A stretch of DNA of 64,000 nucleotides from Cyclina sinensis (lineage: Eukaryota > Mollusca > Bivalvia > Venerida > Veneridae), in NCBI GenBank assembly GCA_012932295.1, contig JAAONU010000001.1, positions 27,876,550-27,940,549 of the forward strand. Direction: 5' to 3'. How positions within the stretch are numbered: the stretch's first letter is position 1; each line of letters opens with the position of its first letter. Below the pieces are notes generated by a model. The model saw nothing but the letters and a program-made list of their open reading frames with translations, did no database searches and was not told the origin of the DNA. The translations under genes were made by a program, and so were the position numbers. Below, piece by piece: positions 27,401 through 33,400 of this stretch.

Positions 27401-30400
27401 TGTTTGCTACAAGCAACTTTAAGGATTAAATTGTAATTGAGGTGTCTTAAAAAGCATAATTAAATAGCCAACATCAGTCATTGTGTTGGTTATTCTAATT
27501 GGCGATATTTTTTCAAACTGTTTTGAAGGTATGCAAAATGTAGCTTTGTTCTGACAGATAAAAACATGTTTGCACTAAATTGCACATAATACAGTATACA
27601 TGTATATGTATTTGAAAACATATGACCTTTTTTCTCTAATGAAATACACATGTGTAGAATGTTCCCATTAATTTTAGTTTTGCAGTTATGTTTCCGCATG
27701 TTACAAACGCTGTTATGTTAAACAATACTGACTGCATTCACTATCATAAAGAACCACTGGAGTTTGGCACTTGTACTTATCCAGATCATTCATACTTCTG
27801 AATTCCAGAAACTTCTAAAATCTGAAATTTTTGGCTGGTCCAGTGGGTGTTCGGTTTTCGGAAGTTCCACTGTATGTGGAAATAAAATTGTACTTACCTT
27901 TTACATACATTTCAGTATGTATATAAAAATTACATGAAAACAACTCTTGTTTTCATTCTGCATTCCTTTCTACTATGATGAGTTTTTTTTCTGCTCACCT
28001 GAGCACCAAGTGCTCAAGGGTGAGCTTTTGCAATCATTGAGTGTCCAGCTTCTGTCAGCATTCATCGTCAACAGTTTGACTTGAACAACTTCTCTTCCTA
28101 TACTGCTAGGCCAACTTTGACGAAACATGTTTAGAATATTCCTTGTATGAAGCTCTGCCAAAGCTGTTAAAAGAATTGAATTCCATCAAGAACTCTGGTT
28201 GCTATGACAACAGAAAAGAAAAACTTTGAAAATCTTCTTCTCTGAAACCACAAGGCCCTGAGCCTTAAGATAAGGTATGTAGCATTTTCTAGTGGACCTC
28301 TACCAAATTTGTTCAAATTTACCCCTGGGGTCAAAATGGCCTTGCTCTGGGGGTCAGTTGATTTTACATAGGCTTATATTGGGGAAACCTTAAAAAAATT
28401 TCTTGTCTGAAACCACAGGGCCTAGAGCTTAGATATTTTTAGCTCCACTTTCGAAGAAAAAAAAAAGGAGGTATTGTCATGACCCTAGTATCGGTGTCTG
28501 CATTGGTTAACCTTTTTCCTTAAGGTCCATTTTACTTCAGATTAAGAATACATGTTTACTATCAAAATGTGATGCCATTTCTAAAGGGCAGATAACCCTC
28601 AAATTTATTTTTGCAAAGTTAAACTCCTTTTTTAACTAAGAATTTCTTGGTTAACCATTTTTGTTAATGTCCATTTCTCAAAAGGTGTCAAAGATATTCC
28701 CTTCAGACTTGGAATAATTGATCACCAGCAAGACCCCTACAAAGATTGTTGGTACCCCTCTCCCAGGGGTCAAAATTAGCCCCATCCCAGGGGTCATTTG
28801 ATTTTGCTTAGACTTACAAAAACTTATTAGCCTAGAAATAAACTATTTACTTACTTTGGATGGGTATTTCCACTCCATGCATGGGATGCATAAAGCATCA
28901 GGTAGAGGTCCTCTATCAAGATTGTTCAAGTTATTTCCCTGTGGTCAAAATTTTCCTCACCCCAGGGTCCTATTTGTACAAAATATTTTATCTAAATTTT
29001 AGACCTAAGATTTTTTGCATGGAGCATCATCTACTAAAAGAGAGATTTTTTTTTTTTAATCTTCTTGTCTGAAACCACAAGGCTTAGAGCTTAAATATTT
29101 TGTATTGAGCACAAGCTAGAGGTCCTTTGCCAGGTTTGTTCAAAATATGTCCTTGGGTCAAATTGGCCCTGCCCTTGTGGTCAATTGATTTTACAAAGGT
29201 TTATATAGGGAAAACCTTTAAAAAAATCTTGTCTGAAACCAGAAGGCGTAAAACTTAGATATTTTGTGTGGAGCATATAAAGGTCCTTTGCCAAGTTTTA
29301 AATTAGGCCTATTTAGTCCAAATTAGCTCTATCTTCACTGGATTTTACATAGACTTATATAGGGACAACCTTAAAAATCTTCTTTTCTGAAACCATAAAG
29401 ACAAGGCTAAGACTTTGTGCATGGAACATCAGCTAGATGTTTTTCTACCAAGATTGTTCAAATTAAGTCCTCTATTGTCACGTATGGCCCAGCCCCAGGG
29501 TCACTTAATTTTACATAGGCTTATAAAGGAAAGACTTAAAACAATCTTCTTGTCTGAAACCACAAGGCCTAGAACTTAGCTGTTTTGCATAGAGCATCAG
29601 GTAGAGGTCCTATACCAAGTTTTTTCAAATTATGCTTCTTCGGTCAGAATTGCATCTACACCAGGGGTAACTTGAATTCAGATGGGGAAAACCTCAAGAA
29701 AGCTTCTGATGTTTGCTCAACAGCAGACCCAAAGCTAAAGTATTTAGGTGAGTGATCAAGGGCCATCATAGCCCTCTTGTCGAGGAACATATCACTTAAT
29801 AGTAGCTTACGAGATTTTGTCTATCTATTCAGGAAACCTAATGCAGTGTATTATTTCTTTCAGTCTATCTTAAACTAAAAAAGTTCTTTCAGTTTTATTC
29901 CCACTTGATGACTGTTTCATGAGATAAAACCAGTACTCGCACCAAAGCTGGGATTTGAAGAAAATAACAGGAGACTGCCAACCTTAATTTGATTCAAACC
30001 AGTGATCTTCAGATCATGAGTGCAGTGTTATATTCCCTGGTTAATGCTTTTTTTTAGCATGAAATCTTTTATAGAAACAATAAGTATTTCACAATTTGTT
30101 AACTAACCAATAAACTTGAGTAATTTCATTGACATTTATTTACAGCTGCTATTTGCCAAGGAAAGAATTTCCCAGCCAAATATGTTATCCATGTGAACAG
30201 TCCTAGCTGGGGTTCACAAAATTCACAACAACTACTTGATACTGCCACTAAAAATGTACTCAAATTAGCGGATGAGAAAAATCTGAAATCTATAGCTATA
30301 CCATCTATAAGTAGTGGAAAGTAAGTTCAGTCTGTTAAGTTACTAACTTTATCATCAGTGTTAATGAATGACCTCTGTATGCTTTCATGTAACCTGAGAA

Positions 30401-33400
30401 TGGGTAGATGAGGATTTTTTAAGAAAAGAAAAGAAAGTTGAACACATATTGAGGAAGTCTTCATTCAGTGTGTGGAGTTATTAAGAAGGTATATAGTTTT
30501 TGAACTGTCTGTCTGTAAGTCATTCTGTCCAAAAACTTAACATTGCCCATAACTTTTTTATAAGTAAACAAATTTACTTCTTCCTGGAACACAATACCTC
30601 TTTGGACAAGACCTTCCCATTGACATATATTTATAAGACCTTGACCCCTGACGTCTAAGGTCCAATTGTCAAAACCCTTAATGTTGCCATAACTCACTTG
30701 TAACTTAACAGATTTAAGTCATGTTTGCACACAACAACCCATTGGAAGAGATCTTCCAAAAGACCTATATTCTTATTACCTTGACCCCAAAATAACCTTG
30801 AGCTTGAGGTCAAATTTTTGAAGAAAAAAAAAACCTCACTCCTTTTGAAGGAACAGCAGTTTATCTTCATCTAGTCCTCATAACACCCCTTCGGACAAGA
30901 CTTTCCCATTGAAATATATTTATAATACCTTGACTCCTAAATGACCTAAACCTCAAAGGTCCAGTTTTCATACACACTTGATATTGGCCATAACTGCCTT
31001 TTTATGCCCTCATTTAGATTTGCCCTTGTCCATCCGTCCGTCCATCCCAAAAAGGTGTGTCACCTGTAGCCCCTTACTTAGTCAAAAATAGTAATTTTCA
31101 ACTTGTGTCACCTGTACCTGCAAAAGCGCTGCACCTACAGTCAAGAAACTTTACAGGAATGTTGATCAGCATGTAAAGTTGTGCACCTGGGGTTTCCTAT
31201 ATAGATTTATTCGGAATTGTTAGAGTTATGGCCCCTTACATACTCAAAATTTGCAATTTTCAACTTGTGTCGCCTGTAACTGCAAAAGCGCTGGAGCTAG
31301 AGTCACCCAGTTCTGAGCAGGGTTGACATACTGTGTCTGACTGAAGCAAATGTCTATGAGAATCGAGTACAGTACCATCAGCGTGTTGGGTGGAGCTTGA
31401 CATGTTTGTCTATGTCACGGGAAGACAGCTCCCATGGTTTGTTGTTCTACACACGAGATAAGTTGCCAGTGACAACTTCCAGTGTTTCACATCAATCTCA
31501 TATGGAACAAGTGTCAGTTACCATCTCATCAGAGCTCTGTCCAAGGTCATTCTGCCTTCTCTATAGATCTCCATCCTTGAACATAACAGACTTTATTAAT
31601 GATCTTTATAATATTTTATGACATTTTATAAACAGCCTGACTTACAGAACATATAACTTAGGAACTTAGTACAAATTAGACATGAAAACACCTGTTTACC
31701 ATCTGCAAACTCCAAGAATGTCCAACTATGCATACAGAATTGTGAAGGATAATATTCATCCATTGGTCACAGTGTTGGAGACAGTATTTTGAGTCTTCAC
31801 ACCACAAAGGGTTTCTTATAGTTGTCATTTTGTTAAACCAATCTTATTAATGATTCAGCGTGAATGACTATCTCGTGGCCATATTGAGGTTGAGTGGGGG
31901 CATCTGTGTCCTATGGACACATTTCTAGTTACTAAACAGATTTAGTTCATGTATGCACACAACAACCCTTTGGGAGAGATCTTTCTAATGGCCTATATTT
32001 TTTACCTTGACACCTAATGGCCTTGACTTTGAGGTCAATTTGTCAAAAAAACAACAACTCATTTTTAAAGGATCTACAATTTATTTTTTATTTACATCTT
32101 TGTCCTCAGCTCAAAGTTCAAAGCACTACTTTTGGGGCATTGTCATCTTTCAGTGACAGTTCTTGTCTTCTATGAATATCAGCTATATATAATAAACAGA
32201 CTTGATATTTAGTGCTTTATAGTTTGAATTTTACTTAGTCTCTGTCACATGTAAATGTTCTGGCATACAGTGGTCTTTCATTTACACTGATATCTATGTG
32301 TAAATGTAGAGTACTTTCTGCGCATGCAGTTAAGTAAGGTCTGTATTTTATGATGTTTCCCTGTGATTATTTTTCTTAGAAGTTTTTAGAACATTAAAAT
32401 TTTATCATTAAATCACATTGCCTTGACATTGGTGTCAAATTTTAGGGGTCTATGATATTTGGGTTTTGAATTTTAGCACTACCAAGGCCAATAAAGAGGG
32501 CCATATGTACATGGACACAGAGAACTGTTTCATGGCAAATTCAGATAGTTGTGGAAGGGAGGGGAGCTGCAAATTGAATATCAGCAGTGCTTTAGAAAGC
32601 AGTGGAAACATCATAAAATAAAGGAGACATTTTTGACACTATATTTATAAATGTGGCCTCACATTTTCTTATGATTTATTCATCAGCTGCTATCTGCCAA
32701 GGCCACAACTTTCCAGCTAAGTTTGTAATTCACTGCAACAGTCCAAGCTGGAGTGCTTCAAACCCTGCAGAGCTCTTAGATAAAACTGTGAAAAACTGTC
32801 TTAAGTTAGCAGATGAGAAAGATCTTCGGAGTATAGCTTTACCCTCTATAGGCAGTGGCCGGTATGTTTCTAGATTTTGAGCCATTCTGAGCACAATGTG
32901 CCTAGGTATTTTTTGGGTGAATCAATTTTCAATTTTACTTTTGCTTGTATTTGTCAACATTATGTATAGGCAAAGTGATATTGTTTAATGCCATTAGTTG
33001 TTCATCTGTCTGTTCATCAACAGAATCTTGAAACTCCTCATGACAGTCAGTAACATGAAGTTACACACACATGCCCAAACAGACAGTTATGATATGTAGT
33101 TGCACTGCCAGTCATACGTATTTGCAGTCGTATAGCCACATCAACAATCATTATTATAATATGTATTTGAAGAAGGATACCCTAATGGCCAATCATGTTT
33201 ATATAGGTGCAGAAGTATACCCTAATGGACAATCATGATATGTAGTTGCACACACACACCAGAACTGACAGTCATACAAAACTGACAGTCATGATATTTT
33301 ATTACAATTGCATACCCAAACTGACAATCATGATATTTTATTGCACTTCATTCCCAAACTGACAATTATGATCACACGCAATCCCGATCTGACAAACATG

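What the first reader, a model, noticed from the sequence alone, without database searches (positions are those of the whole stretch)
30146..32861. macroH2A macro domain has two tandem exons that the reading frame forces to be mutually exclusive
Exons 7a (30146-30320) and 7b (32687-32861) are both 175 nt, in the same phase, open, with proper splice sites, and about 70% identical in protein. Using both puts a TAA in frame at 32718; using neither runs into a TAG in the last exon. Only one-or-the-other gives full-length protein. The swap alters the loop that holds the ADP-ribose phosphates in known macro domains (G-S-G-R in 7b, S-S-G-N in 7a; residues 325-328) and other positions nearby. Vertebrate MACROH2A1 uses mutually exclusive exons too, but at a different exon (the one matching 24298-24388 here). 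This would be an independent way of making ligand-binding variants.
Basis: partly seen in the sequence, partly recalled or inferred. Interest (0 to 1): 0.9.

Follow-up and report, generated by a model that had tools for sequence, protein, structure and literature searches.

The report
Swappable exon pair in histone macroH2A
An invertebrate gene for the histone macroH2A carries two alternative copies of one exon of its ADP-ribose-binding-type domain, of which the reading frame allows only one per full-length protein, at a different place from the well-known alternative exon of vertebrates, so a similar switch may have arisen twice.

Summary
The window carries one macroH2A gene (18477-34944). 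Exons 7a and 7b are each 175 nt, same phase, open, with good splice sites. Messages with 7a or 7b alone encode 381 residues; both together stop at 32718, 144 nt before the last junction (decay predicted); neither stops at 34895. 7a does not look like a relic: 59 of 175 nt but only 18 of 59 residues differ from 7b, fewer than in any of 3000 simulations with all changes neutral, though a late relaxation is not excluded. A second copy of the locus 4 Mb away has both exons unchanged.

New here: 7a is flanked on both sides by bipartite QKI/STAR-type sites, the only exon so placed; seen post hoc, and the motif is not enriched overall. QKI is reported to control the vertebrate macroH2A1 choice (title only seen).

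The ligand claim is partly supported: 7a gives G312S and R315N, but Ser312 is usual in bacterial relatives; I expect tuned, not lost, binding. No RNA data and no other animal's gene could be examined, so use, age and function of 7a are inferred.

The parts
18477..18648 (+). macroH2A coding exon 1 (from ATG; H2A fold)
19227..19333 (+). macroH2A exon 2
19834..20082 (+). macroH2A exon 3 (H2A C-terminus and linker)
20541..20639 (+). macroH2A exon 4
24298..24388 (+). macroH2A exon 5, the position of the vertebrate alternative exon; one copy here, of the macroH2A1.1 type (D203, G223, G224, E225 present)
   Evidence: no second copy or 1.2-type match in the window at E up to 0.5
26616..26705 (+). macroH2A exon 6
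30102..30124 (+). bipartite STAR/QKI-type element ACTAAC-N13-TAAT; possible branch point of 7a (A at 30106, 40 nt before the exon)
   Evidence: lies in the stretch unchanged in the second copy
30146..30320 (+). exon 7a, alternative macro-domain exon (SSGN loop)
30342..30365 (+). bipartite STAR/QKI-type element ACTAAC-N14-TAAT, intron position +22 after 7a
   Evidence: lies in the stretch unchanged in the second copy
30081..30480 (+). 400-nt stretch with no difference between the two genomic copies
32687..32861 (+). exon 7b, human-like macro-domain exon (GSGR loop)
34782..34944 (+). macroH2A last coding exon 8 with stop codon TAA 34942-34944

Best explanation
Exons 7a and 7b are an old tandem exon duplication in macroH2A that is now spliced one-or-the-other, giving two histones that share the H2A part, the linker and the 1.1-type exon 5 but differ in the middle of the macro domain, including the second phosphate loop. 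SHOWN from sequence: anatomy, frame logic, coding constraint on the pair as a whole, intactness in both genomic copies. INFERRED: messages with both exons are removed by nonsense-mediated decay and messages with neither give a truncated domain; 7b is the default, ancestral-like exon; the choice of 7a is set by a STAR-family protein (QKI orthologue) that can compete with SF1 at the 7a branch point (repression) or bind just downstream of 7a (activation) (I put this step at about 0.35); 7a keeps the fold and retunes ADP-ribose/PAR binding through G312S and R315N (about 0.5). The confidence given is for the core claim, that both exons are functional and used one at a time.
For: Frame and splice sites. 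31 of 59 differences at third positions; 18 residue changes against about 35 expected if all changes were unconstrained, 0 of 3000 simulations per copy at or below 18 (minimum 25-26); NG86 dN 0.257, dS not computable as at saturation. The 7a isoform scores as well as the 7b isoform against the Pfam macro profile (113.6 and 111.1 bits, cut-off 22). Both exons identical in the two genomic copies; no event in 350 exonic nt while the introns of 29000-33150 carry 148 events in 3801 nt. Only 3 ACTAAY on the + strand of 18477-34944, two of them within 50 nt of 7a, both bipartite; 34 other both-flank placements in two tiles among 638,004 strand-bases of own-genome DNA. A QKI-like Qua1 exon exists in the genome. 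QKI position rules: passages of PMC3983035 and PMC6028027, abstract of PMC13004596.
Against: No transcript evidence at all, and no orthologue from another animal. 7a evolves faster than 7b (11 unique departures from human against 2). Simulations with only 20, 25 or 30 neutral changes on 7a, all others taken as silent, fit the data in 58, 42 and 15% of runs. Unchanged runs longer than 400 nt also occur in introns of this gene (521 and 465 nt). The STAR motif was noticed by eye before it was counted; over 26706-34781 it is not enriched (3 cores against 6.7 expected, 2 bipartite against 3.3); the up- and downstream sites predict opposite effects; and the upstream A at 40 nt lies beyond the 18-35 nt that PMC3983035 gives for most human branch points.
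Confidence: 0.78

Rival explanations
1. 7a is a relic: a once-used duplicate exon that is no longer spliced in and is decaying slowly.
For: Faster change in 7a (11 against 2 unique departures); up to about 30 neutral changes on 7a alone are not excluded.
Against: No stop, no indel, intact AG and a GTAAGT donor, conservative changes only (all 11 unique replacements BLOSUM62 -1 or better), identity of both genomic copies across 7a and its flanks.
Confidence: 0.1
2. 7a is a poison exon: its role is to be included together with 7b, which stops the frame at 32718 and lowers macroH2A output through decay.
For: The stop lies 144 nt before the last junction, a standard decay configuration (the rule is recalled); 175 nt is not a multiple of three.
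Against: A poison exon needs no conserved protein sequence, yet 7a keeps 41 of 59 residues of 7b with a third-position bias. The two roles can coexist.
Confidence: 0.08
3. The two exons encode equivalent domains and the swap has no ligand consequence; what matters is regulation or other surface contacts. (Compatible with the core of the best explanation; not exclusive of it.)
For: Most differences lie outside the loop (positions 263-308); Ser312 is found in 9 of 10 bacterial relatives.
Against: R315N lies beside G314, whose change to Glu is reported to abolish PAR binding in human macroH2A1.1 (passage in PMC5770377).
Confidence: 0.35
4. Assembly artefact: the duplicated exon arises from misjoined haplotypes.
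For: The locus is present twice on the same contig, about 3.96 Mb apart; long pieces sampled over about 264 kb match at 88-98.5%, which may be an unpurged haplotype.
Against: Each copy carries both exons in the same order, and 7a and 7b differ at 59 of 175 nt, far more than the two copies of the locus do.
Confidence: 0.01

Closest known systems
Vertebrate MACROH2A1 mutually exclusive exons (macroH2A1.1 / macroH2A1.2)
   Same: Same histone variant, same domain, one-or-the-other exon choice affecting the ADP-ribose pocket region; reported to be QKI-regulated (Novikov 2011, title only, seen in reference lists).
   Different: The vertebrate pair is at the segment matching 24298-24388; here that exon is single and 1.1-like, and the pair is the later exon carrying the second phosphate loop. 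In vertebrates one form cannot bind PAR (PMC5770377 passage); here both forms keep S313 and G314.
Tandem duplicated exon substitutions / mutually exclusive exons in general (PMC9741552 abstract and passages; PMC5740500 passages)
   Same: Adjacent homologous exons of equal length, length not divisible by three (as in 377, 60%, of human clusters), inside a folded domain, conservative replacements; [quoted passage not shown]
   Different: No macroH2A event at this position appeared in the listings and passages seen; the introns here (2366 and 1920 nt) are far longer than the under-50-bp spacing of the steric-block mechanism.

Membership tests
macroH2A histone | H2A fold, H2A C-terminus, linker and macro domain in one protein | tested here: met
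   Pfam PF00125, PF16211 and PF01661 over cut-off in both joined isoforms; best PDB match of the 7b-form macro domain is macroH2A1.1, E 8.4e-78
Mutually exclusive tandem exons | Adjacent homologous exons of equal length and phase | tested here: met
Mutually exclusive tandem exons | Inclusion of both or of neither breaks the protein | tested here: met
   by translation; decay itself not tested
Mutually exclusive tandem exons | Transcripts with each exon observed, both together rare | not testable with these tools
   no RNA data available
Vertebrate macroH2A1.1/1.2 exon pair | Alternative copy of the exon encoding residues around D203-G224 | tested here: not met
   one exon 5 and no match to the human 1.2 segment in the window
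ADP-ribose-binding (1.1-type) macro domain | D203, G224 and G314 kept, no 1.2-type insertion | tested here: met
   both isoforms
ADP-ribose-binding (1.1-type) macro domain | Measured binding of ADP-ribose or PAR | not testable with these tools
   experiment
QKI/STAR-regulated exon | ACUAAY with nearby UAAY in a flanking intron | tested here: met
   not enriched over the introns as a whole
QKI/STAR-regulated exon | Splicing change on loss of the STAR protein | not testable with these tools
   experiment

The most novel reading that the evidence does not exclude
An invertebrate lineage has independently evolved a mutually exclusive exon switch in macroH2A at a different exon from vertebrates, tuning the other wall of the ADP-ribose pocket, and has put it under the same STAR/QKI splicing regulator that controls the vertebrate switch.
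Probability: 0.33. Interest if true: 0.78.

Novelty: new variant of a known kind. Interest (0 to 1): 0.6.

Why it matters
macroH2A ties chromatin to ADP-ribose and PAR, and in vertebrates splicing decides whether it binds PAR (PMC5770377 passages). A second, independently built switch at another exon would say that alternating this domain is repeatedly useful, would give a natural pair of domains for dissecting the phosphate loop, and makes a concrete test of whether QKI control of macroH2A is older than, or has converged with, the vertebrate exon pair. The 2012 histone nomenclature paper mentions macroH2A splice variants for vertebrates only, in the passages seen (PMC3380720).

Tried and rejected
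RNA docking/selector pairing: inverted repeats in 26706-34781 gave 11 pairs. One (I7, 27387-27405 with 31686-31704, 19 nt, 84%) brackets 7a; one (I8, 30326-30343 with 30700-30717, 18 nt, 89%) starts 6 nt after the 7a exon; one (I4) lies before 7b; the rest are inside single introns. No chance expectation was computed and none was followed up, so this is unexplored rather than excluded. Steric block: unlikely with 2366 nt between 7a and 7b. Further duplicated exons or a hidden 1.2-type exon in the window: no match better than E 0.05 apart from 7a (exons 3 and 4 were searched by part of their peptides). Other macro-domain hits on C10 and C8 (46 and 34%): none of the ten H2A-part matches lies near them, and the ORFs beside them read by eye as other macro-domain genes; no domain search was run on them. 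Other H2A matches (C16, C8:11.0 Mb, C1:60.6 Mb, 53-69%) are taken as other H2A genes; names inferred. Viral contigs: 37 pattern matches, 0 relatives. Bacterial contigs: 299 pattern matches, 10 relatives, used for residue comparison only. Rfam: 0 matches at gathering. Two further dS methods failed. Nine other splicing-factor motif classes (patterns recalled) gave only single matches near 7a or 7b: one MBNL-type after 7a, one HuR-type before 7a, one MBNL-type before 7b. The mussel macroH2A study and the Capsaspora macroH2A study were looked up by DOI and are not held.
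Full report
Gene and observation. The + strand at 18477-34944 encodes a complete macroH2A: histone fold, H2A C-terminus and macro domain are all over their Pfam cut-offs in both joined isoforms. The internal exon borders have AG and GT. Exons 7a (30146-30320) and 7b (32687-32861) are each 175 nt, enter after one base of a codon and leave after two. Exons 1-6 + 7a + 8 and 1-6 + 7b + 8 are both open for 381 residues and end at the TAA at 34942-34944 (read). 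With both exons the frame stops at 32718-32720, 144 nt before the last junction; with neither it stops at 34895-34897 in the last exon after 307 residues. My first joining had exon 2 one base too early and its translations are to be ignored.

Which exon is ancestral-like. Against human macroH2A1.1 as printed, 7b shares 11 residues that 7a has changed and 7a shares 2 that 7b has changed; 31 of 59 positions are common to all three, 10 are shared by 7a and 7b against human and 5 differ in all three. A two-sided binomial for 11 against 2 is about 0.02 (own arithmetic). So 7b is the conservative exon and 7a the faster one. All 11 unique 7a replacements score -1 or better in BLOSUM62. The 7a isoform nonetheless matches the Pfam macro profile as well as the 7b isoform (113.6 and 111.1 bits).

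Is 7a constrained? 7a and 7b differ at 59 of 175 nt (18/10/31 by codon position, counted on 177 nt with the shared neighbouring bases) and at 18 of 59 residues; NG86 gives dN 0.257 and no computable dS, as at saturation, and two other methods failed. If all 59 changes had been unconstrained on one copy, about 35 residues would differ and 15-23% of simulated exons would be free of stops; none of 3000 simulations per copy gave 18 or fewer changes. The test is weaker if the changes are split: with 20, 25, 30, 35 and 40 unconstrained changes on 7a and the rest taken as silent, 58, 42, 15, 2 and 0% of simulations show no stop and no more than 18 changes. So constraint on the pair is supported, but a late loss of function in 7a cannot be excluded by this test alone.

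The second genomic copy. The 7b peptide finds six places in the window's own genome: both exons here, both exons again at C1:31.863-31.866 Mb, and two weaker macro-domain hits on C10 and C8. The second locus matches window 1-49000, which is as far as the 60 kb that I fetched reach. Sampled tiles 50 and 150 kb upstream and about 40 kb downstream of the window match in long pieces at 88-97%; a tile about 140 kb downstream shows only short, mostly inverted pieces of up to 81% in the three tiles it was compared with. A probe at 29.9 Mb is single. It may be an unpurged haplotype or a large duplication; I could not decide. Over 18000-36500 the two copies differ at 359 of 17985 aligned positions. Of 1320 exonic nt, 3 differ, one each in exons 2, 3 and 5; 7a and 7b are identical. 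Around them (29000-33150) the introns carry 148 events in 3801 nt and none of 3277 intronic 175-nt windows is free of change; over the wider 26706-34781, 275 of 7202 are. 7a lies in an unchanged run of 400 nt (30081-30480), the longest downstream of 23 kb; runs of 521 and 465 nt lie further upstream, mostly in introns, so a run alone is not proof.

Regulatory flanks. The ACTAAY core bound by QKI (passage in PMC3983035) occurs three times on the + strand of the gene: 30102, 30342 and 34339. The first two flank 7a, one ending 38 nt before it with its branch-type A at 40 nt, the other at intron position +22, and each has a TAAY half-site 13-14 nt further on. No other exon of the gene has a core within 100 nt. 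Against this: over 26706-34781 the motif is not enriched (3 cores against 6.7 expected, 2 bipartite against 3.3 in Markov sequence), I saw it by eye before counting, and 40 nt lies beyond the 18-35 nt given for most human branch points. The position is what is unusual: 2.6% of 100-nt Markov windows and 0.5-1.5% of own-genome windows hold a bipartite site, and with a 175-nt pseudo-exon placed every 5 nt over 638,004 strand-bases of own-genome DNA, 52 placements have bipartite sites on both sides: 9 are the 7a site, 9 its second copy, and 34 form five clusters in two other tiles, L032 and L037. The published rule is that upstream binding represses and downstream binding activates inclusion (passages in PMC3983035, and PMC6028027), and QKI competes with SF1 at ACUAA branch sites (abstract of PMC13004596). 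Here both arrangements are present, so the sign is open. A QKI-like Qua1 exon is in the genome (PF16544, 61.5 bits against a cut-off of 26.3; best PDB matches Quaking and GLD-1, E 4e-6 and weaker); I did not look for its KH domain. That QKI controls vertebrate macroH2A1 splicing rests on the title of Novikov 2011 seen in reference lists; the paper was not read.

What the swap changes. In human numbering the exon covers 257-315. 7a changes G312S and R315N in the second phosphate loop, and F269Y, C273V and several further positions. Gly314, whose change to Glu is reported to abolish PAR binding (PMC5770377 passage), is kept, as are S313, S275 and P276. In ten bacterial relatives, found with the 7b peptide, position 312 is Ser in nine and Gly in one, 313 is Thr in ten, 314 Gly in ten, and 315 is variable (Ala four, Ile three, Val, Glu and Phe one each); four of the ten are near-identical to one another in this stretch, and whether the ten bind ADP-ribose is not known from my calls. 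The 7a loop therefore resembles an ordinary macro-domain loop. Exon 5, where vertebrates choose between binding and non-binding forms, is single here and of the binding type. My expectation is two binding-competent forms of different strength or ligand preference; this is inference.

Known or new. Splice variants of macroH2A are described for vertebrates (PMC3380720 passage; PMC5770377 passage). The bivalve methods paper PMC5550673 (12 of 14 passages on macroH2A shown) mentions none there, though its figure legend says that macroH2A intron/exon composition varies in the oyster Crassostrea. An annelid study kept one transcript per histone gene by design (PMC12153100 passage). The listings (20 of 107 papers shown; 20 of 7,621; 3 of 3; 25 of 179; 15 of 4,856; 15 of 1,117; 12 of 233) showed no title or abstract start on an alternative exon in invertebrate macroH2A; the lists are capped and the two most relevant studies are not held, so absence from print is not established. 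Convergent tandem-exon switches in orthologous genes are a documented class (PMC9741552 abstract and passages), which makes this a new variant of a known kind.

Limits. No RNA reads, no orthologous gene from another animal beyond PDB sequences, and no structure model were available. 

Noticed in passing
window 1-49000 against C1:31.832-31.883 Mb of the own genome (L007-L012), and tiles L031-L042: The locus is present twice on the same contig about 3.96 Mb apart, long pieces 88-98.5% identical with many indels; unpurged haplotype or large duplication not decided.
   Followed up: partly
20723-21814: Intron 4 holds a 32-bp minisatellite, about 34 copies, 96% matches; the array appears about 160 bp longer in the second copy (one search match ends).
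   Followed up: no
33426-34544: The intron after 7b is largely filled with a degenerate 39/80-bp tandem array, ending about 240 nt before exon 8.
   Followed up: no
25027-25616: 146-bp tandem unit, 4 copies, in intron 5; the second copy of the locus lacks 296 bp here, about two units.
   Followed up: no
19279, 20020 and 24381: The two copies of the gene differ in one linker residue (Ala/Pro, exon 3) and silently in exons 2 and 5.
   Followed up: yes
32341-32360 with 32604-32623; 27387-27405 with 31686-31704; 30326-30343 with 30700-30717: Inverted repeats placed before 7b, bracketing 7a, and starting 6 nt after 7a; could form structures near the alternative exons, no chance expectation computed.
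   Followed up: no
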